A DNA stretch of 64,000 bases, from the NCBI GenBank assembly GCA_030280995.1, contig JASXTE010000014.1:1976656-2040655 (forward strand). Direction: 5' to 3'. This DNA comes from Hemileia vastatrix. Its lineage: Eukaryota > Basidiomycota > Pucciniomycetes > Pucciniales > Zaghouaniaceae. The translations under genes and the position numbers were made by a program. Shown here one piece after another: positions 2,068 to 51,959 of the stretch (the stretch's first letter is position 1; each line of letters begins with the position of its first letter). The notes beneath the pieces were generated by a model. The model ran no database searches. It was given only the letters and a program-made list of their open reading frames with translations, and was not told the DNA's origin.

Positions 2068-2418
2068 CATTTAACTCAACTTTAGCAACAGGTTCTCTGG
2101 TATAGTCTTGCAAGCTATATCAAGTATTATTTCTGTCTCTGGTGTGGATTTGCAGCCTACATCAAGTATCTTTGCTTTCTCTGGTGTGGACATTGGTCTA
2201 CATTTCAGTTCTTTGGTCTGGTAGTCTGTCTGGAGACTACTTTCTTGGCTCATCAAGCAGTTAAGTGTGTTGAAAAAGGGGCTTTAGCAAACAGGAACCA
2301 ACTTACTTTAGCAAGTAAATCTCACTCTATTTTTCCAAAGGGACAGGGGATTTTCTCTCTGGTTTTTCTCCAAGTCCCTTGGTCAAGGCCTATAGCTAGT
2401 ACTATAGGATTGTCTACA
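2068..2418 (+). repeat. Truncated 5' LTR of element A
   Basis: These 351 bp equal positions 388-738 of the left LTR and 14916-15266 of the 3' LTR, with only a handful of differences. It ends in TCTACA and is followed 4 nt later by the primer-binding site. The first ~740 bp of the LTR are missing because the tandem-duplication junction falls at 2067/2068. Confidence 0.85.
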
Positions 2419-2422
2419 TTTC

Positions 2423-2440
2423 TGGCGCCCAACGTGGGGT
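2423..2440 (+). other. Primer-binding site, tRNA-Lys(CUU) type
   Basis: TGGCGCCCAACGTGGGG lies 4 nt after the LTR end. It is complementary to the 3' end of eukaryotic tRNA-Lys(CUU) (...CCCCACGTTGGGCGCCA), the primer type also used by some retroviruses. Element B has a decayed version at the matching place. Confidence 0.85.
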
Positions 2441-2509
2441 AGAACTTGCTAGTTCTTTGGAATATCTTTTTTCTTTGGTTGGCTCTTTTTGGTGGTTTGG
2501 TCTGGAGGA

Positions 2510-4891
2510 ATGGCTTCTGGTTCCTCTATTCCTGTGGTGACTGTCAGTGGGGGAGATGGTCCTCCTGCTGTGATGGTCAGGGAGAGTGTTAGAATTAAAA
2601 CTTGGGATGGTACCAAGTTTAATTGGGAGGATGTCAAGTGGTTTTTGGAGAAGTATGAAACTGCTGCTGGAGTGGATGGTGCTTCTTACCTGGACATGGT
2701 GAAGCAGATTATCTTCTACATTGGTGATAGGGCAGTGCTGAAGTATATTGTGGCCATGCCTGGCTACAAGAAGAGGGATTGGAAGTTATTGTGTAGGGAG
2801 ATGGTAGATAGATGGGTTTTCAGGTTCACTATGGTGGATCTGAATAAGGTTGTCAGTGAATGGCAATCTTATCGTGGTGTTGGTAGCTTGCATAGTTACA
2901 GAAAGTTTCCGCTACAGTTTGATCCTGTGGTGGAATATTTGGTGCAAGTGGAGGAGCTGGCACATGAAAATGCTGCCAAGGATCTTTTTTGGTCTGCCCT
3001 GGCTAGAGATGTCAGGATGGATGTGTTGAAGGAGCTGTCAAGGAACAACTTGATGAAGACTCTTTCTAATGGGGACCAGAAGTTGCCTGCCTTGGATAAG
3101 GTGAAGGAGGCTGTTGAGGCCCATTTGAAGTTATTGGCTGTGGACACCTATCAGGAGGGGTGTGCCAAATATGTCAGCAAAGTCAGTAAGGCTTTGGCTG
3201 AAGAGGTAGTTAGGGTGAAGAAGGAGGAGAAGAATATGGTGCAAGTTCCCAAACAGGAGAGGGACCCAGTGGTGGAGCAGTTGGCTGATCTCACAAAGCA
3301 GCTGCATATTTTTGTTCAGGAGGCTAAGAAGGTCAATAAGGCACCTTCTCAGCCTAGAGATTTTGATAGGAGGGCTGGTAGGAGTGATCCTTGGGTCTGC
3401 TCTTATTTCAGCAGGAGGGGGAACAGGTCCAATGATTTTTGGGCTTTGAACAGGGATGTTTCTGAAGGAAAGGTGGAATTTTATGGCAGGGTTTTCAAGT
3501 TCCCTGATGGTTCATTTGTGAAGCCCAGTGAGGGGCAGGCTCCTGTTGATTTAGTCAGGAGAAGGGGTGGTCTCAATCAAAGGAGGCCAAGGTTTGAGGA
3601 GATTCCTGATAAGGGGAAGTCTTCTGGTAAGGAGGATGATGATTTCAAGGGAAAGAGGAAGGAGGTCAATAAGGTCTCTTTTTCTACTTCCTTTGGTGGT
3701 TTGGAGTTGTATTCCTGTGGTGGACAGTTAAGTGGAGTATGCTTGGCTGGTGTTTATGATGTGGAAGCAGGGAAGGTGGGAAGGCCTAAGAGCAGTTCTC
3801 AGGCCCAACCAAAGCCAAAGGTTTCAAAGGTGGATCCTAAGCTGAGTGCAGCTAGGAAGAGGTACAGCAAAGAGGAGCTGTACAAGATGCAGAAGGGTAT
3901 GGCTGACATGGGCCCCCCTAGTTTTGGTGCATTGGAAATGAATCGTGAGCCAATGCCAATGGAGGTTGATTCTGACTCTGAGGAGGATGTCCCTTTGGCT
4001 TCATTGCCAAAGCCTGCTGGAGTTAGAGGTTCTGGTAAGGGATCTGGTTTGGTTCCTGTTGATGGTACATCTTTTGGTGGTGCTGGTCCTCAAGAAGCTT
4101 CTAGGACCAAGGTTGTGAATCCAATGGCTCACTTTGAGAGGCCAGTGGTTTCTGGTCAATCTAATGTTATGGACTCTGTTCTTGAAAGGATGAATCAGGG
4201 TCAGGTTTCCTTTTCTTATGGGGAATTGTATGCTATCAGTTCAGGGTTGGCTGATAGACAGAAAAAGTTGTTGACCAGGAGAGGAGTTTCTTCTGGGGAG
4301 GTGGAATACATTTGTGATTCTGCTGAAAAGTTTGGTGAGGGGTTGGAAACTCATTTTTCTGCTCCTCTGGGTTATGTCAATGTCACTCTGAATGGCAGGG
4401 AGGCAAGGGCATTGGTGGATTCAGGTTCACAGATAAACCTGATTTCTTTGTTTGAGGCTACTCATTTGGACCTCCCCATCAAAACTGGTATTGGTGGGAA
4501 TTTGAGAGGGATTGGTGGCCATGTCACTGAATTGGTTGGAACTTCTGAGTTTGTGAAGTTAGATGTTGGTGGAGCCTTAGGGAAGGTTCATTTTTATATT
4601 GCTAAAGGAACAGTTAAAGCTGTTTTGGGTCAGCCATTCTTGATGGATTTTCAGGCAAGAATTGGTTATCAATTTGATTTGGGAATCAGTTTGGAGTTGA
4701 CTGGTGAAGGTGAAAGGAGAATTCACATGAGGTTATCATCCCCTGGAGAGGATGGTTGGGAGACCAGGCATGGTTTATCTTCAATGCGCCAGTGCATGGA
4801 TTGTTGTAGGAGAAGAAGAGAGGTGGGTGCTGCCTCTGGTTTTTTGAAGTGTGGCTCGGGCTCTAGTGAGGGTCTTTCTTTTTTAGAATGA
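2510..4891 (+). CDS. Gag-protease polyprotein of element A
   Basis: An open frame of 793 codons from the ATG of MASGSS; an upstream in-frame ATG at 2489 would add seven residues, but MASGSS is the start shared with element B. The N-terminal ~250 residues are Gag-like. A degenerate zinc knuckle near residue 300 (CSY-F-SRRG) has lost its second Cys, its His and its last Cys. A basic, Ser-rich linker follows. The retroviral aspartic protease has its catalytic DSGS at residue 637 and a VLGQPFL motif about 75 residues later. The frame is uninterrupted, unlike pol. The stop codon overlaps the next ATG. Confidence 0.88.
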   Translation: MASGSSIPVVTVSGGDGPPAVMVRESVRIKTWDGTKFNWEDVKWFLEKYETAAGVDGASYLDMVKQIIFYIGDRAVLKYIVAMPGYKKRDWKLLCREMVDRWVFRFTMVDLNKVVSEWQSYRGVGSLHSYRKFPLQFDPVVEYLVQVEELAHENAAKDLFWSALARDVRMDVLKELSRNNLMKTLSNGDQKLPALDKVKEAVEAHLKLLAVDTYQEGCAKYVSKVSKALAEEVVRVKKEEKNMVQVPKQERDPVVEQLADLTKQLHIFVQEAKKVNKAPSQPRDFDRRAGRSDPWVCSYFSRRGNRSNDFWALNRDVSEGKVEFYGRVFKFPDGSFVKPSEGQAPVDLVRRRGGLNQRRPRFEEIPDKGKSSGKEDDDFKGKRKEVNKVSFSTSFGGLELYSCGGQLSGVCLAGVYDVEAGKVGRPKSSSQAQPKPKVSKVDPKLSAARKRYSKEELYKMQKGMADMGPPSFGALEMNREPMPMEVDSDSEEDVPLASLPKPAGVRGSGKGSGLVPVDGTSFGGAGPQEASRTKVVNPMAHFERPVVSGQSNVMDSVLERMNQGQVSFSYGELYAISSGLADRQKKLLTRRGVSSGEVEYICDSAEKFGEGLETHFSAPLGYVNVTLNGREARALVDSGSQINLISLFEATHLDLPIKTGIGGNLRGIGGHVTELVGTSEFVKLDVGGALGKVHFYIAKGTVKAVLGQPFLMDFQARIGYQFDLGISLELTGEGERRIHMRLSSPGEDGWETRHGLSSMRQCMDCCRRRREVGAASGFLKCGSGSSEGLSFLE

Positions 4892-5088
4892 GGAGGGCTG
4901 ATCACCCTAGTGCTACCTCCTCTCCCCAAGATGAGGAAATCCCAGGTTGTAGTAGGTCAGCTCCCTTGAAGATATACCAAGTGGATTTTCAACTTTCCCT
5001 TTTTAATTTTTCTCTTCTCTGCAAGTATTCATCAAGTTTTTTATCAAGTCTCTGTTCTCTCTCAAGATTTTCAATTATTTTTAACTAA
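4888..5088 (+). CDS. Short ORF overlapping the gag stop (ATGA)
   Basis: The ATG at 4888 overlaps the gag TGA in the arrangement ATGA and opens the -1 frame for 66 codons. The first ~50 residues (MRRADHPSATSSPQDEE...) are conserved in element B, where the overlap is TAATG in the same relative frame. In B the frame runs on to 136 codons through the first 145-bp repeat. It may be the N terminus of pol, reached by termination-reinitiation, but no catalytic domain lies in it. Confidence 0.5.
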   Translation: MRRADHPSATSSPQDEEIPGCSRSAPLKIYQVDFQLSLFNFSLLCKYSSSFLSSLCSLSRFSIIFN

Positions 5089-5131
5089 AGCTCAAGGAAG
5101 AAGATTGGTTATATATCTTTATTGAAAGATA

Positions 5132-5635
5132 TGCGGAAAAGTTTTGGAGTGGTGAGATTGGGGTCTAAAAGTAAGTCCTCCCAATTGTGCACTGCTAGGG
5201 TTTCTTCTACACCTTTCAAAAACATTACCTGGGCCACACCTGTGAGCATTGGGGAAACCCCTGGTTATTTTTGTAGGTCAGAAGAAAACTCAAGAAAAGA
5301 AGATAAAAATTTCAAGATAATTCAAGAAAATCAAAAAAAAATCTGAAGATAATGAAGAAAGAAGATCATCAAGATCAATTTTTGGGCCTCCAGCATGAGG
5401 ATAAACTGCACAATTTTAAAAGAGTTGATTCTGAAGATGAATCAAGATTTGAAGAATTGGAAGACAGAAGTGAAGATGAAGAATTGTAATTGCGGAAAAG
5501 TTTTGGAGTGGTGAGATTGGGGTCTAAAAGTAAGTCCTCCCAATTGTGCACCACTAGGGTTTCTTCTACACCTTTCAAAAACATTACCTTGGCCACACAT
5601 GTGAGCAATGGGGAAACCCTTGGTTTTTGTTCCAG
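5132..5635 (+). repeat. Two 145-bp direct repeats with splice-like ends
   Basis: Copies at 5132-5276 and 5491-5635 are about 90% identical and encode SFGVVRLGSKSKSSQLC-like peptides. Each contains GTAAGT (5171, 5530) and GTGAGC, and each ends in a pyrimidine-rich AG (TTTTTGTAG, TTGTTCCAG), as an intron of about 105 nt would. Element B has the same duplication, with GTAAGT in both copies. The unit may be an intron that controls pol expression; the unspliced frame of the second copy is also open into pol. Confidence 0.6.
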
Positions 5636-8600
5636 GTCTGGTGGTAAAGATTTCCTGAAGATCCCTCAAGTTGAAGGAGGAGCGGCAAAGTATAAGAAGG
5701 TATTGCAGAAGATTAGGCCTGTCAATGAGCCTATGCCTGTGGGTTTGAATCCGCCCTTGAAGAGACCTCCTTTGTCAAGAGGTCCGTACTGTTCTCCTTT
5801 GGTGAAGAATCCTCCAGAATTTGTAGAGATAGCTAGGGTGACTGTGGAAAGGTTGAAAGTTGTTAATTTTGGTCCTGATGGGTGGTTGTCTGAAGAAGAA
5901 AAGAAGTTGTTTTTGCACGTTATTGTGCTAAGGGAAAAGGCTGTGGCTTTTATTGAAGAGGAAAGGGGTGTGTTGAAGCACTCTTATGGGGAACCTTACT
6001 TGATTCCTGTGGTTTGTAATGAACCTTGGAAAATCAAACCTATTCCAATTCCAGCTGCTATCAGAGAGGATTTTGTGGAGATTGTTAGGGAAAGAGTCAG
6101 GACTGGGTTATACAAACAATCAAAATCAAGTTACTCAAGTCTGGTTTTCTGTGTAAAGAAGAAGAATGGAAAGTTTAGGGTGGCTCATGATCTTAGAGCC
6201 TTGAATAGAGTCACAATCAAGGATGCTGATATGCCACCAAGTGAAGAAGATTTTGTTGAAGCTTTTGCTGGAAGGGTGTGTTATGGTTTGGGTGATATTA
6301 TGGGTGGTTATGATGAGAGGGAACTTCATATGGATTCAAGGCCTCTCACAACTTTTGAGACTCCTTTGGGAAGATTTCAGCTCACTAGGTTTCCTCAAGG
6401 AGCAACTAATTCAGTGGCAGTATATCAAGCACAGATGGCTTGGATATTGCAGGATCATGTTCCTACTCATTCTGGTATTTTTATTGATGATGGTGGAATT
6501 AAAGGATCATCCACTAATTATGGTAATGAGGTGTTAACGGAGAACCCAGGAATTATGAGGTTTGTTTGGGAATATGCAATAATTCTAGAGAGAGTGTTGT
6601 TTGGATTGAAGAGGATGGTTTGACCATTTCAGGGTCAAAATTCTGTTGTTGTGTTCCTGCTTTAGATATTCAGGGTCATGTGGTATGTAAAGAGGGAAGG
6701 ATTATGGCAAAGAAAAAGATTAATAAAATTCAGTCATGGCCAAGGCCTAAAAAAACTACTGAAGTCAGGGGATTTTTGGGTGTGTGTATATATGTCAGGA
6801 TTTTTATTAAGGATTTTTCTTTGTTGGCTTCACCTTTAAGGAGGTTGACCAGGAAAGATGCAGATTGGGAATGGACTGAAGAGTGTGAAGAGGATTTTCA
6901 GAAGTTGAAAAAGGTTGTTGGGGAAGATATTGTTCTTCACAAGTTGGATTATGGTGTTGGTGCTGGAAAAATTTATCTGGCAGTGGACTCAAGCTATATT
7001 GCTGCTGGTTCTGTTTTGTCTCAGGAAGATAAAACTGGGAGGTTCAGGCCAGTAAGATATGAGTCTGGTGTTTAATGAGGTGGAATCTAGGTACTCTCAA
7101 CCTAAGTTGGAGTTGTGTGGTGTAGCAAAAATTTTAGAGAAGCTACAGACTGTTTTGTGGGGGAAGCATTTTGAGCTGAAGGTGGATGAAAAATCTTTGG
7201 TTCAGATGATCAATAAACCTAGTCTTCCAAATTCTCCAATGACTAGGTGGGTGGCATTTATTCAACATTTTTTTTTGACCTGGTACACAAACCAGGCAAA
7301 ACTTTTACAATGCCTGATGGATTATCAAGGAGGCTACATACAGATGAAGATTCTGAGGCTGAAGAGTTTGATGAAGATGTTCCAGTGGTTAGGGCCAGCA
7401 CAAAGGGTGCTGAAGATTTTTCTGACCTCCCCCAAGAGGCTAAACTGGCTGGATCTGATCTTGATTCTGGTGATCAGGATGTTTTTGTTGATGAAGATGG
7501 AGTTGTTGTTTGGGATAGCTTGAATTTGGAAAATGGTTTTTTTGTTAGTGAACTGGATTCTCACAAGATTCAGTGGAAAGAGAAGGATGTACCAAAATTT
7601 AAGGATTGGTATCCTGGTTGGGCTGGTCAATTAGCTCATGTTCACACTGGTGATTTTGATGACAGAGTTGTACCCTTGGATGTTGTTTTGTTGGATTTTG
7701 AAGATGAGACCTGGGGCCAGTCTGGGTTTTATTTTATTATGGTGGAATATCTGTTGACCTTGGAGAGGCCAGATAGTTGTGATGATGATACTTGGTTGGA
7801 AATCAAGAAGAAGAGTCCTAGATTTTATGTGTCAGGAAGAAGGCTGATGAGGAGGAGACATCCTAATCATCAAGTTGTGGTGACTCAGAAGAAGGATCAA
7901 GAAGTTGTGTTGAAGTCTTTTCATGAAGACCTTGGTCATAGAGGCTTTGGGGAGACTTATAGAAGAGTAGCTGACAGATTTTGGTGGCCAGGTATGAAGT
8001 TGGCTGTGCAGGGTTGGGTTCAATATTGTAAAGAATTTCAAAGAAGAAGTCACTTGAAGCCTTAAGAGGTCGGCCGTGCTACTGGTGAATCAACTGTTTT
8101 TGGAAGAGTCATTCTGGATGCTGTCCATATTAAAGAGGGCAGGTATAAATAATTAATTGTTGCCATGGATGATTTGTCTGGTTGGGTTGAGGCAGTGCCT
8201 CTGGTTAATTTGACTCCCAAGAATGTGACAGAGTTTTTGAAGAAGGAGTGGAATTTTAGGTATGGGTTGATGAAGTTGGTGACTGTTGATGGCGGGCCAG
8301 AGTTTGGTGCCAAATTTAAAGAAGCTATGGCTAGTGTTGGTTCTAAAGTTAGAATGGCTACACCTTATTATCCTGAAGCTGAAGGCATGGTTGAAAGAGG
8401 CCATCAAGTTATCAAGAATTCTTTGGTAAAGATGTGTGGGGATAGTGCTGAAAAGTGGAGGCATTATTTACCCTTGGTGTTATTTTCTGATAAGGTCACT
8501 GTGAAGAGGACAACTGGCTATTCTCCTTATGAGTTAATGTTTGGTCAGAAAGCTGTTCAACCAGTGGACTTGGAAGCTGTCTCTTATCTTGGAATTGATT

Positions 8601-8982
8601 AGGATGAGGTGCACTCAACAGAAGAATTGCTCTGTGCCAGGATGCAACAGTTGGAATGTAGAGAGGAACGTCAAGAGAAGGCATACTCTAGAATGATGAA
8701 GATTAGGAATAAATCAGTCAGATACTCGGACAATAAGTTGGCTCATAGACTCAGGAATCCCTTGAAACCTGGTTGTTTGGTTTTGGTTTATAATAGAAGT
8801 TTGTAGAGTCAGTGGGGAAAATGTTTGCTGACAGATGGAATGGACCTTAGAGAGTCAAATATCAGGTGCCTGGAGGTTCTTAAGTTTTGGAAGAGTTGGA
8901 TAGTGCAGTCTTAAAGAAGAGAGTGGCTGCAGATCAGGTGAAGAGATTTTATCCCAGAGGCACTAGACATGAAGAAGAATGA
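5490..8982 (+). pseudogene. Pol of element A (RT, RNase H, integrase), frameshifted
   Basis: The reverse transcriptase lies at about 5700-6900, with VAHDLRALNR and the catalytic loop FIDD (about 6480-6491) where most Ty3/gypsy enzymes have YxDD. RNase H follows (AVDSSYIAAGSVLSQE, about 6980). The integrase has an HHCC finger near 7920-8040 whose last Cys is now Phe. The core retains D (DDLSGW, 8169), D (VTVDGGPEFG, about 8285) and E (GMVERGH, about 8388). Frameshifts fall near 6600, 7070 and 7270. Stops include TAA after HLKP (8063), one in GRYK*L (about 8151), one at 8600 and one at 8804. The frame ends near 8982. It is not functional as it stands. Confidence 0.9.
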
Positions 8983-9059
8983 CTCTGCAATGAGGATAAA
9001 CTATGGAACATTCTTTAAATTTTGGATTTTTGGTGTTACAGAGAAACTTTTGTGTTGGA

Positions 9060-10060
9060 AACTTTTTGTTAAAAGGTAACCATGGGTGGGGCTTCTAGAT
9101 TGGATCTTGGCAAGTGTAGGGGTAACTGATGGGCTGGCTGCTCTCTAGAACAATTACCCCAGATTATCTGTTTCCAACCCTTTCTCTTAATTTGGTTGAA
9201 ACCTAGTATTGGTTTCTTTTCACAGGTTTTAGTCCCCTATGACTTTAAACTGGAATTTATTTTGGTTTTCAAGTGCTGGACTCTTCACTCTTATTGGTTT
9301 TGGTTTATTGTGTTGGATGTTGTGTTTTTGTTAGAAGGTACCCAGGGGGGGTTTCTAGATTTTATTTTGGCAAGTGTGGGGGTAACTGATGAGCTGGCTG
9401 CTCTGGAGAACAGTTACCCCAGAATGTCTGTCTCAAGTCTTTTTTTTTTCCTAGTTGAATTATAGTTCTGTTGTTTATTATTCAGGTTTCAAGTCCACTA
9501 TGACTTTAAACTGGTTCGGGACTGGCTTCTTTATCTTTGTTTTTTTTGGGTTGGTGGTGGATCACTGGTGGTCTCCCATCATTTTTACTTATTGGAGGGA
9601 GCCCACCCAGTGATCATTTCTATGGACTGGACTTTCTCTTACTGGACATTCTCTTAATCTGGACCATCCATGAAGCTGGAATTTCTTTGATTTTTTAATT
9701 ATGATTTTGCTAGATAGTAGTTTCAGATTATTTTCTTTTTTCTCTTTTTTCTTTTAATTTTTTTATGGGGGTTGTTAAAATTAAAAAAATAAAAATATAG
9801 GGTGTTACCACATCAGGGTCACCTGGATGTGGGCAAGAATTGGTGGGGAAAGGCTCATCAATTGGCTGGGCAATGCTATTTTATCATTTTATTTTTATTT
9901 TCATTAATGTCATTTTTTATTTTTTATTCTCATTATTACCCTTAATTTATGTTTCTTATCTCAAATCATTTAAAGCATTTAAGGTGTATCCACATCAAGG
10001 TGCACTTGGATGTGGGCAAGGTATCAGGGGATCAGCTCATCAATTGGCTGTGGGATACCA
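9060..10060 (+). repeat. Hairpin modules downstream of pol (element A)
   Basis: Four kinds of inverted repeat stand in an AT-rich background. H1 (9119-9160 and 9379-9420) has GGGGTAACTG paired with CAGTTACCCC. H2 (9560-9615) has GATCACTGG paired with CCAGTGATC, with an inner CTCCC/GGGAG stem. H3 (9801-9870) and H4 (9983-10060) have CCACATC paired with GATGTGG and share CTCATCAATTGGCT. All recur in element B, and H1, H2 and H4 recur in C. Unlike the spacers, the stems are conserved. Function is unknown; RNA packaging, termination or export signals are possible. Confidence 0.75.
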
Positions 10061-10269
10061 TTTGTATTATTTTTTTATATTTTATTTTATTTCATTTATT
10101 TTTATTTTATTTATTAATTTATAATTTTAGTATGTTAGTAGACTGTTAAAAAAAAATTAGAATTTTTAGTTATTAATTTTTTTGTTTATTTATTATTATG
10201 TTTTTATCTTTTTGCAGGAGCTCAATGTCTGAATGATGAAGTTACTGGAGGCTGGTCCGGGTTATGATG

Positions 10270-12887
10270 TCATTTTTGTTTTTTGTTGGGGTTGTGGGAA
10301 GCACTGTGTTCTTTGAAGTGCATCCTGCTGGAGAGATTATATGGATTATAATGGGCAGGAATGGGTTTGGATGGAAGTTCAGAAGAGGGAGATAAAGAGG
10401 CAGGAATGGATTGTTGGAAGGTGTGCTTAATGATCCTAGACATCTCCCAGTGGTTGTACAATAGTTGTTTCCTCAAGGATTTCTTAAAGTCATTTAAAGG
10501 TCCATGGAGGGCAAAGGCTTTCAGAATGTTTGAACACATGGTGCTGAGGTGTTGTTTCATGTCTCCATAATCCAGGGTCAAAAAAGTTTCTAGAGGTTGG
10601 CCAACTCCAATAGTAGATTCAGGAGGAGGGATGCCAACTAGACAAGAAGAATTGGATCAGTAATTATTTTTGTTGAAGAAATTGGATGAATTAATGTGGT
10701 ACTTACAGATTGGAAGCTCATAAAATTTGTAAGCAGCTGGAATTTGGACTTCTAAAGATTTTGGAATGGTGATAGTAGGTGGATCAATCAGGGAAAGATA
10801 TGGATTCTCTTGTTCTTCCTCTGAAAGTTTTTGAGAAGGTGAACTAGGAGGCTGATGTTCCTGGGGCCTAGTTGGAGCAGCAGGCCTGTTGTTGCTGTTG
10901 TTAGAATTTCTGCTTGATTCAGTTGGATGAGGTGCTGGTGATGGAGTACCAGGGTTGTTATAAGATGGGGAAGGAGAGGGTGATCTGGAAGCGGATTGAT
11001 CTCTTCTGGATGGAGCTCTTGAAGGAATGGAAATGTCAAAAGAATAGTTGGCTGGCAGAGGAGAGGTGTAGTTTTGTTTCCTTAACTGGGGGCAAATTTG
11101 TGGTTTTGGTGCAGTGTTGGGTGCTCTGGTGTCTTCCTGGGTTCCTCTGGAAGGTCTCCTAGAAGTTTGGGAAATTTTGGAGTTTTTGGATCTTAGAAAA
11201 GTTGGCTGCACTGCTCTGGGAGAAGTGGGAGGTGGCTGCATGAGGTTGTATTTGTTTATTGGAGGAATTTGGCTGTTTTCCAGTTGTTTTTGATGTTTTG
11301 AGCCTGATTTTCACTGTCTAGTGAGGCGGTGTGGTTTTCCAACATTGGAAGGGGCCTTTGTTGTGTGATTTTGGAGCTGTTTGTGCATGTCTTAATTGAC
11401 ATTTGTTAAGGAATTGGGTATTTTTCTGGTTTTATTCCTTGGATATTGGGTCTGCGGGTATGTGGGTACTATCATTGGATAGCCCTGGTTTTTCTCTATA
11501 TTTTATGTCTTGAAGACATTTTTCATGTTCTGAGTTTTGAGGGGTCATTTCCTCATTTTTCATTTATAAAAGATTGCTGTTTAATTTTGTTTTTCGTGTT
11601 TTACGGTCTAACCTTAAGTCTTAGGGTTAAGTGCTTATTACCATTGGATAGAGCTAATTTTTCTCTATATTTCATGTCACAATGTTGTTATAGTGAAATT
11701 CCGTGTTTTAAAGGTTTTAGTAGTTGTAGCTAATTTTTCTAAGTAGATTAGTTGTTTTTATTGGTTTTCTGGCTTCAGCGAGGCCGGACCGCTTCAGGCG
11801 GCATCTCTGACGTTGGGCAGCCTGCCCGCCTCTGTTTTAGGAGGTTGGGGAGCGCTCCAGGAGGGTTTTTTATGCAAGTTGGCGGGTACAGGCGCCAGAT
11901 TGGTGGGTGCGCATGGGCTCTTAGTTAGTGGTCTGTGTGTACATAGTGAATAAGACAGTTTGGGGCAACCTTAATCATCATACAACCATCCAGAGGTGAT
12001 ATCATTTTTCCTCACTCAGTTTTCACTGTTTTCTGGCCACAATTGGCTGTGTTTGTTGCAAGTAAGTTCTTCATTTAACTTAACTTTGGCAACTATTTTC
12101 TCTGTTATAGTCTTGCAAGCTATAGCAAGTATTATTTCTGTCTCTGGTGTGGATTTTCAGCCTACATCAAGTATCTTTGCTGTCTCTGGTGTGGACTTTG
12201 TTCTACATTTCAGTTCTTTGGTCTGGTAGTCTATCTGGTGACTACTTTCTTGGCTCATCAAGCAGTCAAGTGTGTTGAAAAGGAGCTTTAGCAAAACAGG
12301 AACCAACTTACTTTAGCAAGTAAATCTCACTCTATTTTTATAAAGGGACAGGGGATTTTCTCTCTGGTTTTTCTCCAACTCCCTTGGTCAAGGCCTATAG
12401 CTAGTACTATAGGATTGTCTACAGTGGGCGGGCCGCCCAACGCTGGCCGGGCCACCTGAATGAGGTCTTGCAGCCTAGGAGCTGATTTTAAAGCTTTTGG
12501 AGCTAAATAAGCAGAGATAAAAGCTGCTTCTTGGGGAGTTAAAGCAGGCCTTTTGGGGACAGTTCTGGAAACTGAGTTCCGGGATCTTCTGGATGGTGCT
12601 GACAATAAAGATGAAGAGGCTGGACCTAGCTCTGGGGATCTGGTAGGGGATCTGGAGAGGTATTTATGAGAAGGTGAAGGAGGAGGAATAGGGTAGTTGG
12701 AATCTCTGTCACATTTCTTTGTTTTGGAGTAGCAACAATCACAGGCCCTGTTGTAGAATTCGGCTTCAGGAGTTGGAAGAGTGAATGTGCAAGGTCTGCA
12801 CATGTGGATGAACTGTTTGCAGGCATAGTCCTTGGGAGCAGTGAAGCAAGGAAGATTGGAGGGGTCAAAATTAGGGGATCCATCCAT
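10270..12887 (-). pseudogene. Antisense gene 2 of element A (Zn-cluster-like), split by a solo LTR
   Basis: The gene reads opposite to gag-pol. Exon 1 starts at 12887 (MDGSPNFDPSNLPCF). Near residues 19-60 lies a cysteine-rich region ending in CDCCYSKTKKC (CX2CX6C); the first Cys triplet has lost one Cys to Phe relative to the pattern inferred from A and B. A Ser/Pro/Arg-rich linker follows. A solo LTR (11330-12423) interrupts exon 1, which resumes at 11329 and has a frameshift near 11255. A 69-nt intron (10706-10638, GTAAGT...TCTAG) leads to exon 2 (10637-10270), a charged helical domain (LDYGDMKQHL...). The spliced junction is in frame. It has no known function and is homologous to B 30372-31822. 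Confidence 0.75.
11330..12423 (+). mobile_element. Solo A-type LTR inside antisense gene 2
   Basis: A complete 1,094-bp LTR from TGTGGTTTTCC to ATTGTCTACA. It is flanked by GCGG (11326-11329) on the left and GTGG (12424-12427) on the right, a 4-bp target duplication differing by one C-to-T change at a CpG. Removing it and one flank joins the two halves of gene 2 exon 1. It is the product of LTR-LTR recombination after an insertion of this family. Confidence 0.88.
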
Positions 12888-13485
12888 GATCTGTGTTGAG
12901 AAAAGATGATGGAAAGAGATAAGAAGGAGATTTTTGTCAGTGATGGGTAGATGATGAAGTGAAGGTGGAAGTTCAGCAGGTTGGATGTAGGTGTATTCTG
13001 TATGAAATTGGCTGGGTCTATTTTATGCAAATTCTGTAAGTCCATCAAGACTTTAAACTGAACACTGTGTTAGTCCCCCAAGACTTAAAACTGAGGATTG
13101 TTTGATGGTGTAGTCCCCCAAGACTTTAAACTGAGGATTGTTTGATGGTGTAGTCCCCCAAGACTATAAACTGAGGAATGGGTTTTTTTTGTTGGAATGG
13201 GTTTGAAAGATTGGCAGAGGGTATCAACAGGGGGAGCCTCTGAATTTAGCAAAGGCAAGTTTAGGGGTAATTGATGGGCTGGAATCTCTATTCACAATTA
13301 CCACAGAATGTTAGTTTTTTCTCTGTGTCTTAATGTGGTTGATCTCTGGTTCTGGGTTTATGATTTAGGTTTTTAAGTCCCCCAAGACTATAAAATGAGG
13401 ATGGTCCCCCAAGACTTAAAACTGAGGGTTGTTTGTGGTTACATCCTATAGAGGGTGTAGTCAATTTTTCTTTTCTGAATCAAGC
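12888..13485 (-). repeat. Array of ~25-nt motif between antisense genes (A)
   Basis: At least six copies occur of a motif that reads, on the - strand, close to GTTTAAAGTCTTGGGGGAC. They lie near 13038, 13071, 13112, 13151, 13376 and 13403. Each can fold on AGTC...GACT. An H1-like inverted repeat (GGGGTAATTG...CAATTACC) lies at 13264-13301. No gene is seen. Two further copies lie at 9231 and 9484, after pol. Confidence 0.75.
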
Positions 13486-14127
13486 TCAAGTACGAGTGAA
13501 AATACAGAGGGAATCAATAGATGAAATGAAGTGTTCAGAATTAGCCTTGAAATGGTGAATGAGATGTCTTCTGTTCTCAATGTCCTGTGGATCTCTAGCA
13601 GGAGTGGATTGGAAGTAGTTTAGCAGAAGGTGTTTCTGTTGAGATGTGTGTTGTTGGAACTTGGCCTTGATTGCGGGCAAGTGGTTTTGTGTTGGTGGTT
13701 CAATGGATCCTACATTGGTATCATCACTGTAAGAAGATGGAGGAACTGAGAAGTCATCAGTTTTATTAAGTGGAAGGAAGAAATGGAAGTTTTTACCATA
13801 AAATGGACCAGGGATGGTGGAACTTGTTGTTTTGGTGGTTTTGGCACTCTTCTGGGAAGGGTGTAGCTTTTTGATTAATCTGGGAATCAAGATGGATGGC
13901 CTAGATCTTTTGGTGCTGGTAGAAGATGGACCAGGTTGAGGTGGAGGTGAAGCTGTTGCAGAAGATAATGGATCAGGTCTGTAGCAGGTCTTCTTTCTGG
14001 AGTTACAAACATCACAGGACATTCTGTATGCATGGACAGGAGGTGTGATGGTGCAGATTTGATTATTGTCAATGCAGTATTGGCAAGGACCCATTTCAGA
14101 GGCAGATTTGGGAAGAAGGTTGAACAT
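13486..14127 (-). CDS. Antisense gene 1 of element A (Zn(II)2Cys6-like)
   Basis: The start at 14127 (MFNLLPKSASEMGPCQYC) is chosen because it matches element B; the open frame reaches 14247 inside the LTR. The domain has CX2CX6C (CQYCIDNNQIC), 12 residues, then CX2CX6C (CDVCNSRKKTC), the spacing of fungal binuclear zinc clusters, but with the basic loop in the second half. A 51-nt intron (13796-13746, GTAAAA...TTCTCAG, branch CTGAT) is likely. It is in phase, so the unspliced frame is open too. Exon 1 is 331 nt, exactly as in B. The C terminus is helical and charged (LLLNYFQSTPARDPQD). The spliced product is about 196 residues. DNA or RNA binding is an inference. Confidence 0.75.
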   Translation of the reverse strand: MFNLLPKSASEMGPCQYCIDNNQICTITPPVHAYRMSCDVCNSRKKTCYRPDPLSSATASPPPQPGPSSTSTKRSRPSILIPRLIKKLHPSQKSAKTTKTTSSTIPGPFYGKNFHFFLPLNKTDDFSVPPSSYSDDTNVGSIEPPTQNHLPAIKAKFQQHTSQQKHLLLNYFQSTPARDPQDIENRRHLIHHFKANSEHFISSIDSLCIFTRT

Positions 14128-14162
14128 GGTGGTTTGATGAAGAAAGAATGTGGACATTCTTA

Positions 14163-14175
14163 ATTGGAGGGAGTA
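14163..14175 (+). other. Polypurine tract of element A
   Basis: ATTGGAGGGAGTA stands immediately before the TGTGG start of the 3' LTR, where plus-strand DNA synthesis is primed. Elements B and C have matching purine tracts at the same place. Confidence 0.75.
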
Positions 14176-15266
14176 TGTGGTCTTCCAACATTGGCAGGGG
14201 CCTTTGTTGTGTTGCTTGGTACTGTTTGTGCATGTCTTATTTGACATCTGTTGAAGAATTGGGTGTTTTTCTGGTTTTATTCCGTGAATATTGGGACTGC
14301 CGGTATGTGGGTACTATCATTAGATAGCCCCGGGTTTTCTCTATACTTCATGTAATTTTGATATTTGTCATATTCTAAGTTTTAAGGGGTCATTTCCTCA
14401 TTTTTCAGTTACAAAAGACAGCTGTTTAATTTTGTTTTTCACGTTTTATGGGTTAACCTTAAGTTTTAGGGTTAAGTGCTTAGTACCATTAGATAGGGCT
14501 AATTTAACTCTATATTTTATGTCTCAATGTTGTTATAGCGTATTTTGTGTTTTAAGGGTTTTAGTAATTGTAGTGAATTTTTCTAAGTAGATTAGATGTT
14601 TTTATTGGTTTTCTGGTTTCAGGGAGGCTGGGCCGCTTCAGGCGGCACCTCCAACATCGGGCAGCCCGCCCGCCTCTATTTTAGAAGGTTGGGGAGCGCT
14701 TCTGGAGGGATTTTATTCAATTTGGCCAGTACAGGTGCCAAATTTGTGGGTGTGCATGGGCTCTTAGATGGTGGTCTGTGTGTACATACTGAATAAGACA
14801 GTTTGGGGCATATTTAATTATCATACAACCATCCGGAGGTGATATCCTTGTTCCTCACTCAGTTTTCACTTTTTTTTGGCCACAATTGGCTTTGTTTGTT
14901 GCAAGGTTAGTTCTTCATTTAACTCAACTTTAGCAACAGGTTCTCTGGTATAGTCTTGCAAGCTATATCAAGTATTATTGCTGTCTCTGGTGTGGATTTG
15001 CAGCCTACATCAAGTATCTTTGCTTTCTCTGGTGTGGACATTGGTCTACATTTCAGTTCTTTGGTCTGGTAGTCTTTCTGGGGACTACTTTCTTGGCTCA
15101 TCAAGCAGTCAAGTGTGTTGAAAAAGGGGCTTTAGCAAACAGGAACCAACTTACTTTAGCAAGTAAATCTCACTCTATTTTTCCAAAGGGACAGGGGATT
15201 TTCTCTCTGGTTTTTCTCCAACTCCCTTGGTCAAGGCCTATAGCTAGTACTATAGGATTGTCTACA
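14176..15266 (+). repeat. 3' LTR of element A
   Basis: A full-length 1,091-bp LTR, TGTGGTCTTCC...ATTGTCTACA. It carries the same 42-bp tandem units (near 14944-15038) and GC-rich island as the other copies. It is followed by ACGT, the likely right half of a 4-bp target duplication whose partner was lost at the 5' side. Confidence 0.9.
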
Positions 15267-24340: not shown

Positions 24341-26010
24341 TCTTCCAAAGTCTTGACATGACATCAAGCCAGATAGGCTGAGTTCTTATCTGAATTTTCT
24401 TTCACTATTACCTATTGCCCCTGGAAAAATTGCATAGTTCCAGACATATTTTCACATTGAGACAACATTAACCCGGATCGGGGGGAAGAATTTGCTAAAA
24501 AGAACCTATCCAATGTCAAATCAATTTTAACAACTCAACAAATCAATACAATGACAACTCAAACAATTCAAAATCCACTATGCAACATTCAAGAAGCTCA
24601 ATCAAAAGATGATTATTGTATGGGGGTAAAAGACAAAATACTCTCAAGGAAAGGGGCCAAAAGATTCAGTATTGAATCAGGTCTATTAGTCTTCAAAGTT
24701 AGAGTAGTCATACCTGATTATAAGGATATAAAATTATGGATTTTCAATAGCAGACATGATTCTCCATTAGCTGGTCATTTTGTGTTTGATAAAACATACC
24801 AGTTAATAGCAAGGAATTTCTTCTGGCCAGGAATGACTAGAGAAATAAAGGCCTATATCAAAGCCTGTTATAAATGTAATAGGAAAAAGGTACCTTGAAA
24901 TAGGAAGTATGGGTTGCTTCAACCACTTCCAGTTCCCTCTAAACCTTGAGAATCAATTTAGATGGATTTCATTTCTCAATTACCTCCATCAGATAAATTT
25001 GAAAGTATAATAGTTATAGTTGATAGATTTTATAAAATTTCTATTTTCATTAAAACTGTTACTACTGCAACAGCAGAGAATTCAGCAAAATTATTTCTAG
25101 AACACGTATTTTCTGATTATGGATTACTCAACAATATTATTTAAGATAGAGGTTCTTTGATTTTTTCTACTTTCTGGACTAAATTATGTCCACAATTAAA
25201 TATTACAAGGAGCCATTCTAATGCTTATCATCCTGAAACCAATGGGCAACCCAAAAGATTCAACCAAATCCTCAAACAATATCTTCAAATGAATTTTAAT
25301 TATAAACAAGACAATTGGACCACATGGTTACCATTGGCCAAATTTGCTTATAAAAACTCAACACATTCTTTGACAAAAAATCTCCCTTCAAAACTATCTA
25401 TGGATGACATCCTTGATTCAATCTGATTCATGTAGGAATAAACCATCCTGCAGAACATTATCTTCAATTAATTTAAAGACTTCAAGGCAAACTTCAATCT
25501 AACCTGGAAGCAGCAAATTGAAGGTATAAGGGACAGGCCAATTAACATTGACAATCTGCTCCACACTTTACCCCAGGAAATAAAGTATGGCTCAACACAA
25601 AAAATATCCAAAAAACTCAACCATCTAGAAAGCTATCTGAGAAACGCTTGGGTCCATTTTAAATTGATGCTGAAATCTCTAAAAATGCATTTTGACTCAA
25701 GCTACCTTGAAAGTGGCAATCAATTCATCCTGTCTTTCACATATCTCTCTTGGAACCGGCTCAAGAAATATACCCAGGAAAGAACCATCCTACTCCTGAA
25801 CCAGTCAAAGTAAAAGATCATCTAGAGTGGCAAGTAAGCAGGATTCTTAATTCAAGAAGGCGCAAAGGTAAACTTCAATATCAAGTGGAATGGGAAGGCT
25901 ACCTTGACAACACTAATAAAAAATCCTGGGAACCAGCCATTAATGTTTGTAATTCTCCTGAATTTATCAAATACTTTCATTTAAAATATCCTTCAAAACC
26001 TAAACCTTAA
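24341..26010 (+). pseudogene. Integrase and chromodomain of element E
   Basis: An HHCC finger (RHDSPLAGHFVFDK ... CYKCNRKK, about 24740-24890) is followed by the core. That has D in MDFISQLP (24962), D in IIxDRGSLIFS after a TAA at 25142, and the E position in NGQPKRFNQ, where Glu is replaced by Lys. The C terminus (25750-26010) is a chromodomain: WQVSRILNSRRRKGKLQYQV then WEGYLDNTNKKSWEP. The chromodomain marks a chromovirus. Other stops lie near 24897, 24946 and 24958. Confidence 0.88.
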
Positions 26011-26728: not shown

Positions 26729-27727
26729 TTATTCTTCTAATTTTCTTTGAATCAACTCCTTCATCTTTTACATGACTTGCCAAATTCCCTTTTGACTCTT
26801 CTCAATCAATTCATCACCTTCATCAAACACCACCTCCCCCATATCCAACAATTCTTTGGCTATATCATATGAGGCCAAATCCACAATTTTCCTGACCTCT
26901 TCACATAAAACCTTTACAAATGACATTCAACGAGTTTGGCCAGGTTTCTTGGACCATAATCAATCCAAGACTTCAACAAATAAGTTGTTGTCCTCAGTGT
27001 TCCACAGACCACTTTCAATCGGCCCTTCAACCTCAGCAGGAACCTCAGGGACTGGCCCACTGGTTAATGCTGTGGGAATCTCATCTGTGGTATCCACCCC
27101 CTAAAGATTAAGAAAAAAAACCAGAAAGTTAGTACCATCAAATTAATAAAATTTAAATTAAATCACTTACTCCAAATTCAGGATCAAATTTGAGGAGCAA
27201 TAGTTTTCTCTCCACCACCTCTACTTCATCTCAATCATATTCCTTGTTGATCAGTCGTTGTTTCTTTGACCTGATGGCTTCTTCCCCTGCTTGTTATGAA
27301 GCACCTTTGACACCCTTGTATACTTCTTCTTCTATTATCCTTCACTTCCCTGAAGCTACGTCTGTAGCCCAATCAGATATCTCCAACCTCTCCTCCTGGC
27401 TCAATCCCTCCAATTCATCCACAGCCAAATCACTAGTAGTGGAAACATCCCATATATCTTCAACACTGGCCTTCAAGTTGGTGATTGACCATAATTTTGT
27501 AGGGGTTAATGGCTCCCCATTATCATTGAAAGCCAGGGTGTTACACGCCACTTGATGCCATTGACAGAACTTGCACTTCTTCCAAAGACCTTGAGACGCC
27601 ATACTCTCCATGCAAAATAAATACATGGCCACACAGGCCGTGCTTGGAGTTTTGAATTGCTAAGTGGGAGTCCCCCATCAGTTTGAGGGTGAGGAGGAAT
27701 AGGTGTAGGATTGGTGTGTTTGGGCAT
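26729..27727 (-). pseudogene. Antisense gene 3 of element E (Zn-cluster-like)
   Basis: It starts at 27727 (MPKHTNPTPIPPHPQTDGG), homologous to F 52052. After an early frameshift the cysteine domain reads STAC-x6-C, 12 residues, CKFCQWHQVAC: CX2CX6C-X12-CX2CX6C with the first Cys changed to Ser. VEDIWDV follows, and a stop after ASGK (27342) at the same place as in F. A 70-nt intron (27170-27101) has GTAAGT, TACTAAC and CTTTAG. The C-terminal part (KIVDLASYDIAKELLDMGEV) matches F. It ends near 26729. It lies opposite to pol and is probably inactive. Confidence 0.65.
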
Positions 27728-27851: not shown

Positions 27852-27866
27852 TTTCATGCTTTATGT
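27852..27866 (+). repeat. First 15 nt of the 3' LTR of E
   Basis: TTTCATGCTTTATGT aligns, with several transitions, to the first 15 nt of the 5' LTR. It follows ACCCAGGCATC, the sequence bordering the LTR in F too. The last four bases, ATGT, are the left target duplication of B; the right one is ACGT at 42509. Confidence 0.7.
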
Positions 27867-28956
27867 TGTAGACAATCCTATAGTACTAGCTATAGGCCTT
27901 GACCAAGGGAGTTGGAGTAAAACCAGAGAGAAAAACCCCTGTCCCTTTAGAAAAATAAGTGAGATTTACCTGCTACAGAAAATTGGTTCCTGTTTAAAAA
28001 AAGCCCTTTTCCAACTCACTTTACTGCATGATCAGTCAAGAAAGTAGTCTACAGACAGACTACCAACCAAAGAACTGAAATGTAGACTAATTTCCACACC
28101 AGAGAAAGCAATAATACTTGATGTAGGTTGCAAATCCACACCAGAGACAGCAATAATACTTGATATAGCTTGCAAGACTATACCAGAGAAAACAGTTGCT
28201 AAGTTAAGTTAAATGAAGAACTCACTTTGCAACAAACACAGCCAAATTGTGGCCAAAAACAGTGAAAACTGAGTGAGGAACAAGGATATCACCTCTGGAT
28301 GGTTGTATGATAATTAAAGTTGCCCCAAAATGTCTTATTAACTATATACACACAGACTACTAACTAAGAGCCCATGCACACCCACAAATTTGGTGTTCCT
28401 GACCGCCAAATTGCATAAAACCTTCATAGAAACGCTTCCAAGCCCTCTAGAACTGAGGCAGGTGGTATTCCTGACATTGGGAGGCCGGCCTGAAGTGGCC
28501 TGACCACCCTGAAGCCAGAAAACCACCAAAAAACACCCAAAATACTTAGAAAAATCATCTACAACTGCTAAAACCTTTAAAGCACATAATTACGCTATAA
28601 GATCATTGTGACATGAAATGTAGAGAAAATTCAGCTCATTCTAACAGTACTAAGCACTTAACCCTAAGACTTAAGGTTAGCCTGTAAAACACAAAAAATA
28701 AAATTCAACAGCAATCTTTTAAAATGAAAAATGATAAATTATTTTCCAAATACTTAGACTATGAGAAATGTCATCAAGACATAAAATATAGAGAAAATCT
28801 GGGGCTATCCAATGGTAGTACCCACATCCCCGTAGTACCAATATTTGCTGCATAATTCCAGAAAAACACCTAATTATTTAAACAATGCCATTTAAGGCAT
28901 ACCAAAACAACACCAAATAAACCAACAAAGGGCTCTGTCAATGTTGGAAGACCAAA
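27867..28956 (-). repeat. 3' LTR of element B
   Basis: 1,090 bp, starting TGTAGACAATCC on the + strand. The inner end reads GACCAAA where other LTRs read GACCACA. It keeps the 42-bp tandem units and is more diverged from the A LTRs than those are from each other. Confidence 0.88.
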
Positions 28957-28969
28957 TCCTCCCCCCAAT
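28957..28969 (-). other. Polypurine tract of element B
   Basis: On the - strand ATTGGGGGGAGGA abuts the 3' LTR, matching ATTGGAGGGAGTA in A and ATTGGAGGGAGGA in C. Confidence 0.7.
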
Positions 28970-29004
28970 AGAGAATTTCCATATTCTCCTTTACCACAAC
29001 CACC

Positions 29005-29653: not shown

Positions 29654-29739
29654 CTTAGAAATAAAAAAAAATTCTTGACCTCTCCAGACTTCTTGAATGT
29701 AGCCAATCATCATAAAATAATTCCTCAGTTTACAGTCTT

Positions 29740-30251: not shown

Positions 30252-30371
30252 TCCATGCACAATTCTCCTCAACCAACCTGCTGAAATTCCACTCTTTCTT
30301 CACCATCTACACATCACTGATAAATTTGTTTATTCATCTCTTTTCTCACCATTATTGCTCCTTCACAGGTT

Positions 30372-31822: not shown

Positions 31823-31987
31823 AGAGAACACATTACTTCCTGTAATCCAAACAAGAAACAAAAACGCCAACACCATCCAGACTCACTCCCAGAGGCTTTT
31901 TCATCCCTTCATTAAATAAAAGAATTCAAAAAAATTTAATAAATAGAAAAAAAATAACAGCTAACAGATATATATATATATAATTTG

Positions 31988-32728: not shown

Positions 32729-32840
32729 AAATTTAATTTTTATTTTTATCTACTAAACTACTGACATACTAAAAAAATTTGAAATTTAAATTAAAATGAA
32801 ATGAATAAAATAATATGAACTAAATAATTATTTAAAATGT

Positions 32841-41648: not shown

Positions 41649-41652
41649 GAAA

Positions 41653-51949: not shown

Positions 51950-51959
51950 GATTCCTGGG

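What the first reader, a model, noticed from the sequence alone, without database searches (positions are those of the whole stretch)
10270..14127. Two different LTR-retrotransposon families carry antisense Zn(II)2Cys6-like genes
Between pol and the 3' LTR, on the opposite strand, A, B and C (non-chromodomain family) carry gene 1, A and B also carry gene 2, and E and F (chromovirus family) carry gene 3. All three genes encode two cysteine triplets with cluster-like spacing near the N terminus, a low-complexity linker and a helical C terminus. Ordinary Ty3/gypsy elements have no such genes. The same layout in two families argues for a retained function, perhaps transcription control, silencing escape or nucleic-acid binding, rather than chance capture.
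Basis: partly seen in the sequence, partly recalled or inferred. Interest (0 to 1): 0.9.

Follow-up and report, generated by a model that had tools for sequence, protein, structure and literature searches.

The report
Zinc-cluster genes hidden antisense in retrotransposons
In a rust fungus, at least two unrelated groups of jumping genes carry, on the opposite strand near one end, extra genes for small proteins with a fungal-type zinc-binding motif, and these genes have been kept by natural selection, probably to help the jumping genes control themselves.

Summary
Two Ty3/gypsy families carry antisense genes between pol and the 3' LTR: a non-chromodomain family (A and C in the window) and a chromovirus family (E, F). 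A third, diverged relative (H) carries a broken one. In an unnamed 748-Mb rust-fungus genome an LTR lies upstream in 20 of 20 fetched gene-1 loci and 29 of 30 gene-3 loci. Genes 1 and 3 encode C-x2-C-x6-C-x12-C-x2-C-x6-C; gene 2 has x15. Genes 2 and 3 have conserved GT-AG introns on the antisense strand. dN/dS in the antisense frame is 0.31 (gene 1, A vs C), 0.18 and 0.14 (gene 2 start and exon 2) and 0.23 (gene 3 exon 1), against 0.23 for gag-protease; unrelated frames are mostly near 1. Young copies drift, and gene 3 exon 2 is inconclusive. Genes 1 and 2 are paralogues; gene 3 resembles them only in cysteine spacing. Pfam Zn_clus is narrowly missed by gene 1 and not hit by genes 2 and 3; folds were uninformative. 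Antisense accessory genes are known in plant Retand/Grande elements and Botrytis Boty, so this is a new variant of a known kind. Binding the element's own LTR is the favoured, untested function.

The parts
2068..15266 (+). Element A, non-chromodomain Ty3/gypsy: LTR remnant 2068-2418, internal region 2419-14175, 3' LTR 14176-15266 (starts TG, preceded by purine-rich GGAGGGAGTA)
   Evidence: self-comparison, sequence
2489..8602 (+). gag-pol of A: aspartic protease (in 2489-4891), reverse transcriptase (5490-6623), integrase zinc domain (7247-8065), integrase core (8153-8602, E 1.3e-6, under Pfam's cut-off); broken by stops
   Evidence: Pfam, ORFs
13486..14127 (-). Gene 1 of A, single exon, 213 aa from ATG 14127 (another ATG at 14157): zinc-cluster motif, P/S/K-rich linker, C terminus modelled as helical at low confidence
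   Evidence: dN/dS
13984..14085 (-). Gene 1 cysteine motif C-x2-C-x6-C-x12-C-x2-C-x6-C (CQYCIDNNQIC ... CDVCNSRKKTC)
   Evidence: translation; Pfam Zn_clus sub-threshold in 12 of 12 A-family copies, not in the C-family copy L060
12425..12887 (-). Gene 2 of A, exon 1, first part: start codon and cysteine motif C-x2-C-x6-C-x15-C-x2-C-x6-C (one motif cysteine replaced in this copy)
11325..12424 (+). Solo LTR nested inside gene 2 of A
10707..11324 (-). Gene 2 of A, exon 1 continued: P/S-rich linker
10638..10706 (-). Gene 2 intron, 69 nt, GTAAGT ... CTAG on the antisense strand
   Evidence: 69 nt in the 15 A-family copies (A included) where both ends were found, of 21; 75 nt in 6 of 6 C-family loci
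10270..10637 (-). Gene 2 of A, exon 2: conserved C-terminal region ending in a basic NPNKKQK stretch
   Evidence: dN/dS 0.19 and 0.14; alignment
27864..42511 (-). Element C, same family as A, inserted into element E; carries a nested solo LTR at 34631-35728
28972..29650 (+). Gene 1 of C, split between two frames
30384..31819 (+). Gene 2 of C (approximate limits; start by alignment; splice acceptor not found by pattern in this copy)
51144..59505 (-). Element F, chromovirus-type family: LTRs 58719-59505 and 51144-51949
51960..51966 (+). TATAAAA about 90 nt before the gene 3 start, just inside the LTR edge
   Evidence: sequence; TATAAAA in 22 of 30 copies, E included
52052..52606 (+). Gene 3 of F, exon 1 (premature stop at 52151-52153, inside the first cysteine triplet)
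52136..52237 (+). Gene 3 cysteine motif, C-x2-C-x6-C-x12-C-x2-C-x6-C, in F interrupted by the stop
52607..52662 (+). Gene 3 intron, 56 nt, GTAAGT ... TTTTAG
52663..52957 (+). Possible gene 3 exon 2 (model by comparison with other copies); coding test inconclusive
27165..27727 (-). Gene 3 of element E, diverged and damaged
   Evidence: tblastn; alignment with F
25711..26007 (+). Chromodomain of E, showing that this family is a chromovirus
   Evidence: Pfam PF00385 E=6.2e-11
60255..60966 (+). Gene-1 relative in a third, diverged element (H), frameshifted: CDLCRLKRIKC triplet and gene-1-like C terminus

Best explanation
These are accessory protein genes of the retrotransposons themselves. Shown: they lie antisense between pol and the 3' LTR, have their own start codons, have conserved antisense-strand introns (genes 2, 3), and their proteins evolve between lineages under purifying selection about as strong as on gag-protease. 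Inferred: an antisense promoter at the 3' LTR/internal edge makes a spliced mRNA; the protein folds into a two-zinc, six-cysteine cluster, enters the nucleus and binds DNA through the basic second triplet; it acts on the element's own LTRs to control sense transcription, in the manner of antisense-coded regulators such as HTLV-1 HBZ. Because the intron is on the antisense strand, the sense genomic RNA keeps it through each round of reverse transcription. Supply in trans from intact copies would let copies with a broken gene 2 still spread. My estimate: genuine selected antisense protein genes 0.95; regulators of the element's own transcription 0.55.
For: Selection in the antisense frame: gene 1 A vs C 0.31 (bootstrap 0.21-0.42); gene 2 first 90 codons 0.18 (0.11-0.27); gene 2 exon 2 0.14 (0.08-0.24); gene 3 exon 1 0.23 and its zinc part 0.15, with 0.28 and 0.27 in the parts outside the search query; gag-protease of the two window copies 0.23 (0.18-0.30). 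In these same regions the other frames give 0.82-2.01, except the mirrored frames that share third codon positions (0.30-0.47). Six gene-3 motif cysteines kept in 27, 24, 27, 29, 28 and 29 of 29 copies, while a neighbouring seventh is C in only 15 of 29. The indels between C and the A family that all 14 A copies share inside gene 2 coding are 3, 18, 18 and 3 nt. Introns. Linkage: LTR upstream in 20 of 20 and 29 of 30, integrase end on the other strand in 15 of 20. Gene 1 approaches Pfam Zn_clus in 12 of 12 A-family copies (best E 0.0011; L010 19.1 bits against a cut-off of 21). Basic stretches in genes 1 and 2.
Against: No transcript, zinc or DNA-binding data. AlphaFold2 models are at pLDDT 34 and 42 and say nothing about the zinc site. 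Pfam's cut-off is not reached in any copy scanned; the C-family gene 1 of L060 shows no Zn_clus at all. The basic residues sit in the second triplet, not the first as in Gal4-type clusters (recalled). In gene 2 two extra cysteines are kept as well as the six (13 and 14 of 14 A copies; 6 and 7 of 7 C copies), so its ligands are uncertain. 10 of 14 A-family copies carry a frame-breaking deletion in gene 2. Within the C family gene 1 gives 0.60 and the gene 2 start 0.38; the gene 2 linker gives 0.58 (A vs C) or 0.98 (within C). Gene 3 exon 2 is inconclusive: 0.54-0.81 in every frame over the whole exon and 0.26 for its last 50 codons, but 0.44 against 0.47-1.46 for its last 60 codons in 15 of 29 copies, and 19 of 29 indel events there are not multiples of three. 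A non-coding GA-rich control gives 0.45-0.62, so a low ratio alone is weak there; the contrast between frames carries the argument. A CGG/CCG excess is notable in one of four A-type LTRs and absent from E/F LTRs.
Confidence: 0.55

Rival explanations
1. Counter-silencing: the proteins bind the element's DNA and block its methylation or heterochromatin, instead of acting as transcription factors.
For: Very many copies in one genome (first-look candidates 4782, 5754 and 5492, of which 40, 150 and 150 were scored). CGA codons often read CAA or TGA, as CpG decay would give (read by eye; not counted).
Against: Nothing here separates it from transcriptional control; no methylation data.
Confidence: 0.2
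2. Replication factor: a zinc-binding nucleic-acid chaperone or packaging factor, like a nucleocapsid supplied from the other strand.
For: Short cysteine motif plus basic and low-complexity regions; selection like that on gag-protease.
Against: Six-cysteine spacing is that of DNA-binding clusters rather than CCHC knuckles (recalled); gene 1 leans to Zn_clus in 12 of 12 A-family copies.
Confidence: 0.15
3. The antisense RNA is what matters (double-stranded RNA or promoter interference); the protein is incidental.
For: Antisense transcription as regulation is discussed for such elements (PMC7264820).
Against: An RNA role predicts no codon-level constraint; the frame contrast and the cysteine pattern show it.
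Confidence: 0.05
4. Captured host transcription-factor fragments drifting without function.
For: Zn_clus matches exist elsewhere in the genome (13 places over the cut-off); young copies drift.
Against: dN/dS 0.14-0.31 between lineages, shared indels in multiples of three, kept introns and cysteines.
Confidence: 0.05

Closest known systems
Plant Retand/Grande/RIRE2 antisense additional ORFs (aORF-3R; TRP28, gene23)
   Same: Ty3/gypsy; long pol-3'LTR region; antisense coding sequence; tandem repeats in that region; suspected DNA-binding regulators (PMC11963269: abstract, Background and Discussion read; PMC7264820: parts 1 and 2 of 3 read)
   Different: No TRP28 (Transposase_28) match here; six-cysteine motif instead; two paralogous genes in one family; fungal host; a chromovirus family also involved
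Botrytis Boty antisense gene brtn
   Same: Fungal Ty3/gypsy element with an antisense gene; known here only from the title of Zhao et al. 2011 (Virology 417:248) in a reference list and from passages in PMC8365987 and PMC7264820
   Different: The brtn sequence and paper were not seen, so homology was not tested; no zinc cluster is mentioned in what I read
Fungal Zn(II)2Cys6 transcription factors (Gal4 type, PF00172)
   Same: Two C-x2-C-x6-C triplets with a 12-residue spacer (genes 1, 3), N-terminal position, low-complexity linker
   Different: Basic residues in the second triplet; spacer of 15 in gene 2; Pfam score below cut-off; encoded by a retrotransposon
HTLV-1 HBZ (mainly recalled; its antisense origin and nuclear location are mentioned in PMC11963269)
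   Same: Antisense regulator expressed from the 3' end of a retroelement
   Different: bZIP (recalled), not a zinc cluster; only a working analogy

Membership tests
Zn(II)2Cys6 binuclear cluster (PF00172) | C-x2-C-x6-C-x5-12-C-x2-C-x6-8-C spacing (recalled) in genes 1 and 3 | tested here: met
   x12 spacer; gene 1 all six in frame in 15 of 21 copies; gene 3 position 22 of 30 loci by a pattern that allows stops
Zn(II)2Cys6 binuclear cluster (PF00172) | Same spacing in gene 2 | tested here: not met
   x15 spacer, and an extra Cys inside the first triplet
Zn(II)2Cys6 binuclear cluster (PF00172) | Score over Pfam's curated cut-off (21 bits) | tested here: not met
   gene 1: 12 of 12 A-family copies match below it, best E 0.0011, L010 19.1 bits, L060 of the C family no match; gene 2: none in the three copies scanned with the cysteine part (A; L059, L060); gene 3: none in 11; H 17.1 bits
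Zn(II)2Cys6 binuclear cluster (PF00172) | Basic residues in the first triplet (recalled) | tested here: not met
   basic residues lie in the second triplet in all three genes
Zn(II)2Cys6 binuclear cluster (PF00172) | Two zinc ions held by six cysteines in a two-helix fold | tested here: inconclusive
   AlphaFold2 pLDDT 33.6 (gene 3) and 42.0 (gene 1)
Zn(II)2Cys6 binuclear cluster (PF00172) | Binding of CGG-type DNA sites | not testable with these tools
   only a CGG/CCG count: in four A-type LTRs 14, 84, 100 and 49 of 500 resamples were as high; no excess in three E/F LTRs
Antisense aORF-3R of Ty3/gypsy elements | Antisense coding region between pol and 3' LTR | tested here: met
Antisense aORF-3R of Ty3/gypsy elements | Present in most copies and conserved like other element proteins | tested here: inconclusive
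   conservation like gag-protease is met; prevalence was not tested, since the copies were found through the genes themselves
Retand lineage | TRP28 domain | tested here: not met
   no such match among Pfam results listed at E up to 10
Chromovirus (E/F) | Chromodomain at the pol C terminus | tested here: met
   E, PF00385 6.2e-11; opposite-strand chromodomain inside the 1.5-kb flank in 11 of 30 loci
Chromovirus (A/C) | Chromodomain at the pol C terminus | tested here: not met
   none in the 4 A-family pol-end frames scanned

The most novel reading that the evidence does not exclude
Unrelated Ty3/gypsy lineages of rust fungi have independently acquired, and kept, antisense zinc-cluster transcription factors that run element-encoded feedback circuits; with thousands of LTR copies as targets, these circuits could also reshape host gene control and help explain the giant rust genomes.
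Probability: 0.25. Interest if true: 0.85.

Novelty: new variant of a known kind. Interest (0 to 1): 0.62.

Why it matters
What antisense genes of plant and fungal Ty3/gypsy elements do is called unknown in the papers I read (PMC7264820, PMC11963269). Here the protein class is suggested by the sequence (a six-cysteine motif typical of fungal regulators), selection is measurable, introns give a clear RNA-seq test, and the same layout occurs in a chromovirus and a non-chromovirus. Rust genomes are unusually transposon-rich, 47-92% (PMC12210899, abstract), so a self-regulating element protein would matter for how they grew.

Tried and rejected
Homologues in a 5.8-billion-protein set: none at E up to 1 for gene 1 or for an alignment of gene 3; gene 2 was not searched. 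The same set holds rust pol relatives (119 hits; the named ones are from Austropuccinia, Cronartium and Puccinia), so rust proteins are in it, but the search needs shared 5-residue words and the antisense genes may be unannotated: absence in other rusts is not shown. PDB by sequence: nothing for gene 1, nothing credible for its alignment (best E 0.2). Structure prediction: uninformative, so no fold search was run. Homology of gene 3 to genes 1/2: not supported beyond the cysteines (4184 and 7702 of 20000 shuffles reach the score; hhalign probabilities 1.5 and 0.4). Gene 1 with gene 2: supported (2 of 20000; tblastn 1.4e-5 and 3.8e-7 against the window with the low-complexity filter off), although hhalign gave only 0.5. 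LTR binding sites: weak. Ascertainment: gene 3 copies were picked by protein similarity, so parts outside the 92-aa query were tested apart (0.28 and 0.27); C-family copies were picked by gene 2 exon 2, so the 0.14 for that exon is biased low, while gene 1 and gene 2 exon 1 in the same copies are not; the gene 1 DNA query reached 72 nt into the LTR, so the first bases of LTR upstream come with the choice. Errors of mine: one row for the end of gene 3 exon 2 used the wrong register and the row for the second gene-1 cysteine fell on an alignment gap (replace them); a printed label says 28 copies where 27 were counted. Rows dropped: L053 (identical to L052) and E from the within-family gene 3 counts; L055 and L056 (frameshifted) also from the gene 3 indel counts; 6 of 20 copies from the gene 2 alignment (four with little or none of gene 2, L014 with part of it, L015). 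The six-frame controls used 15 of 29 copies. Papers: searched the held library and listed 7 to 20 papers each of up to 2,511; none listed describes antisense zinc-cluster genes in rust retrotransposons, which is no proof of absence in print.


Full report
What is there. The window lies in an unnamed 747.6-Mb genome of 791 contigs. The reverse transcriptase of element A is closest, among named proteins, to Austropuccinia (65%), with Cronartium and Puccinia also named; better unnamed hits reach 70%. So the host is very probably a rust fungus; the species was not established. Self-comparison shows one element A (2068-15266, +) whose 3' part is interrupted by a solo LTR at 11325-12424, and a colinear element C (42511-27864, -) that has itself landed in a chromovirus E. 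A second chromovirus-type element, F, lies at 59505-51144 (-). A has protease, reverse transcriptase and integrase; no chromodomain shows in the 4 A-family pol ends scanned. E has a chromodomain.

The antisense genes. Gene 1 is one exon: 213 codons from ATG 14127 in A, open over 213-215 codons in 13 of 20 other copies, two of these 13 without an ATG at that position. Gene 2 has a cysteine-rich start, a long P/S-rich linker, an intron and a conserved second exon. Gene 3, in E and F, has a P-rich start, the cysteine motif, an acidic linker, an intron and perhaps a second exon. The 3' LTR starts at 14176 and gene 1 at 14127 or 14157, so a promoter for gene 1 should lie in or at the LTR. For gene 3 a TATAAAA stands just inside the LTR edge in 22 of 30 copies.

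Motif. Genes 1 and 3 have C-x2-C-x6-C-x12-C-x2-C-x6-C, gene 2 has x15. In gene 1 the six codons are cysteine in 21, 21, 21, 20, 19 and 20 of 21 A-family copies, and 15 of 21 have all six in frame; in seven C-family copies five of the six positions are cysteine in 4, 6, 5, 5 and 5 (the second fell on an alignment gap). In gene 3 they are kept in 27, 24, 27, 29, 28 and 29 of 29 copies, 8 of the 10 losses being stops, while a seventh cysteine nearby is kept in only 15 of 29. That contrast points to the six as the functional set in gene 3. In gene 2 the six are kept in 12, 13, 12, 13, 13 and 13 of 14 A copies and 5, 5, 5, 5, 6 and 6 of 7 C copies, but two further cysteines are kept as well (13 and 14 of 14; 6 and 7 of 7), so its ligands are less sure.

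Selection. Between the A and C families (14 by 7 copies) the antisense frame gives dN/dS 0.31 for gene 1, 0.18 for the first 90 codons of gene 2 and 0.14 for its exon 2, against 0.23 for gag-protease between the two window copies. For gene 3 exon 1 among 29 copies it is 0.23, in the zinc part 0.15, and 0.28 and 0.27 in the stretches outside the search query. In these regions the other frames give 0.82-2.01, except mirrored frames that share third positions, 0.30-0.47. Results on the other side: 21 recent A-family copies show no codon bias; within the C family gene 1 gives 0.60 and the gene 2 start 0.38; the gene 2 linker gives 0.58 between and 0.98 within families. Gene 3 exon 2 is inconclusive: 0.54-0.81 in all six frames over the whole exon, 0.26 for the last 50 codons, then 0.44 against 0.47, 0.49, 0.52, 1.22 and 1.46 for the last 60 codons in 15 of 29 copies, and 19 of its 29 indel events are not multiples of three. 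A non-coding GA-rich control gives 0.45-0.62.

Indels. Between C and the A family the indels shared by all 14 copies inside gene 2 coding are 3, 18, 18 and 3 nt; a 19-nt frame-breaking deletion is shared by 10 of 14, and five copies have private 1-nt deletions in exon 1. Gene 3 exon 1 shows 8 distinct indel events among 27 copies, 5 of them in threes, against 437 in about 300 nt downstream, a number swollen by uncertain alignment there.

Introns. The gene 2 intron is GTAAGT...YTAG, 69 nt in the 15 A-family copies (A included) where both ends were found, of 21; of the six misses five lack the region. It is 75 nt in 6 of 6 C-family loci; in the window's C copy the acceptor was not found. The gene 3 intron is 56-60 nt in the family and 70 nt in E; by pattern a donor was found in 21 and an acceptor in 28 of 30. 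An intron on the antisense strand passes unspliced through the sense RNA that is reverse transcribed, so it can persist in a retrotransposon in this orientation; its conservation between families argues that the antisense RNA is spliced.

Linkage. With the gene on the plus strand, an LTR in the opposite orientation lies upstream in 20 of 20 gene-1 loci and 29 of 30 gene-3 loci; the integrase end lies on the other strand downstream in 15 of 20 (one a weak match) and the chromodomain within the short flank in 11 of 30. The gene 1 query itself reached 72 nt into the LTR. These copies were found through the genes, so they do not tell how many elements lack them.

Relations. Genes 1 and 2 are paralogues (tblastn). 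A third element, H, which matches A near the end of pol at about 70% in DNA, carries a frameshifted gene-1 relative with a CDLCRLKRIKC triplet (Zn_clus E 0.006) and a gene-1-like C terminus. Gene 3 shares only the cysteine spacing, so a common origin is open. Canonical Zn_clus matches exist elsewhere in the genome (13 places over the cut-off, best 42.8 bits); capture from a host gene is possible but not shown.

Reading. The minimum that the evidence forces is a set of real, selected, very probably spliced antisense protein genes belonging to the elements. The likely work is nuclear DNA binding and control of the element's own LTRs, by analogy with plant antisense genes suspected of it (PMC11963269, PMC7264820). 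Membership in Zn(II)2Cys6 is not claimed: Pfam's cut-off, the place of the basic residues and, for gene 2, the spacer are not met. 'Works like' remains the best guess. The layout is a known kind; the protein class, the two paralogues, and its presence in a chromovirus and a non-chromovirus of one rust fungus are new as far as the searches made here show.

Noticed in passing
3-2067 and 14531-16595: A 2.07-kb stretch (LTR part plus the flank after A's 3' LTR) is repeated in direct orientation at 98% identity, 14.5 kb apart, which suggests that a 14.5-kb unit was tandemly duplicated.
   Followed up: no
31988-32749: An array of about 127 TTTTAT units (99% matches) lies in element C between gene 2 and pol.
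   Followed up: no
414-523, 2094-2191, 14942-15051, 28093-28191, 34835-34956, 41667-41763: Six A-type LTRs or LTR pieces in the window hold about 2.3 copies of a 42-bp repeat, a possible regulatory repeat.
   Followed up: no
13071-13177 and 29722-30240: Tandem repeats with AGTCTTGGGGGACT or close to it lie between genes 1 and 2 in both A and C, recalling the tandem repeats of plant Retand elements.
   Followed up: no
G000 C121:11060249-12134147: Ten gene 2 exon 2 matches with nearly the same scores, many about 100 kb apart, suggest a very large tandem array.
   Followed up: no
2412-8227, 10265-10986 and 12427-14175 against element C: A and C agree at 85-87% in gag-pol but only about 72-75% in the antisense region; dS is 0.36 for gag-protease and about 0.9 for gene 1, as if the 3' module had been exchanged between lineages.
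   Followed up: partly
A family, gene 2 (L010 and nine others of 14): A shared 19-nt frame-breaking deletion marks an amplified subfamily, which hints that gene 2 can be supplied in trans.
   Followed up: partly
20742-20969 and 61737-61987: A piece of about 220 bp inserted in E's 5' LTR has a relative near 61.7-62.0 kb, possibly a small non-autonomous element.
   Followed up: no
46806-49527: Another retroelement with a reverse transcriptase (PF00078, 7.9e-26); whether it has antisense genes was not worked out.
   Followed up: no
G000, places: 12 of 13 Zn_clus matches over the cut-off lie below coordinate 111 kb of their contigs, one on a large contig; these may be small or foreign contigs, lengths not seen.
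   Followed up: no
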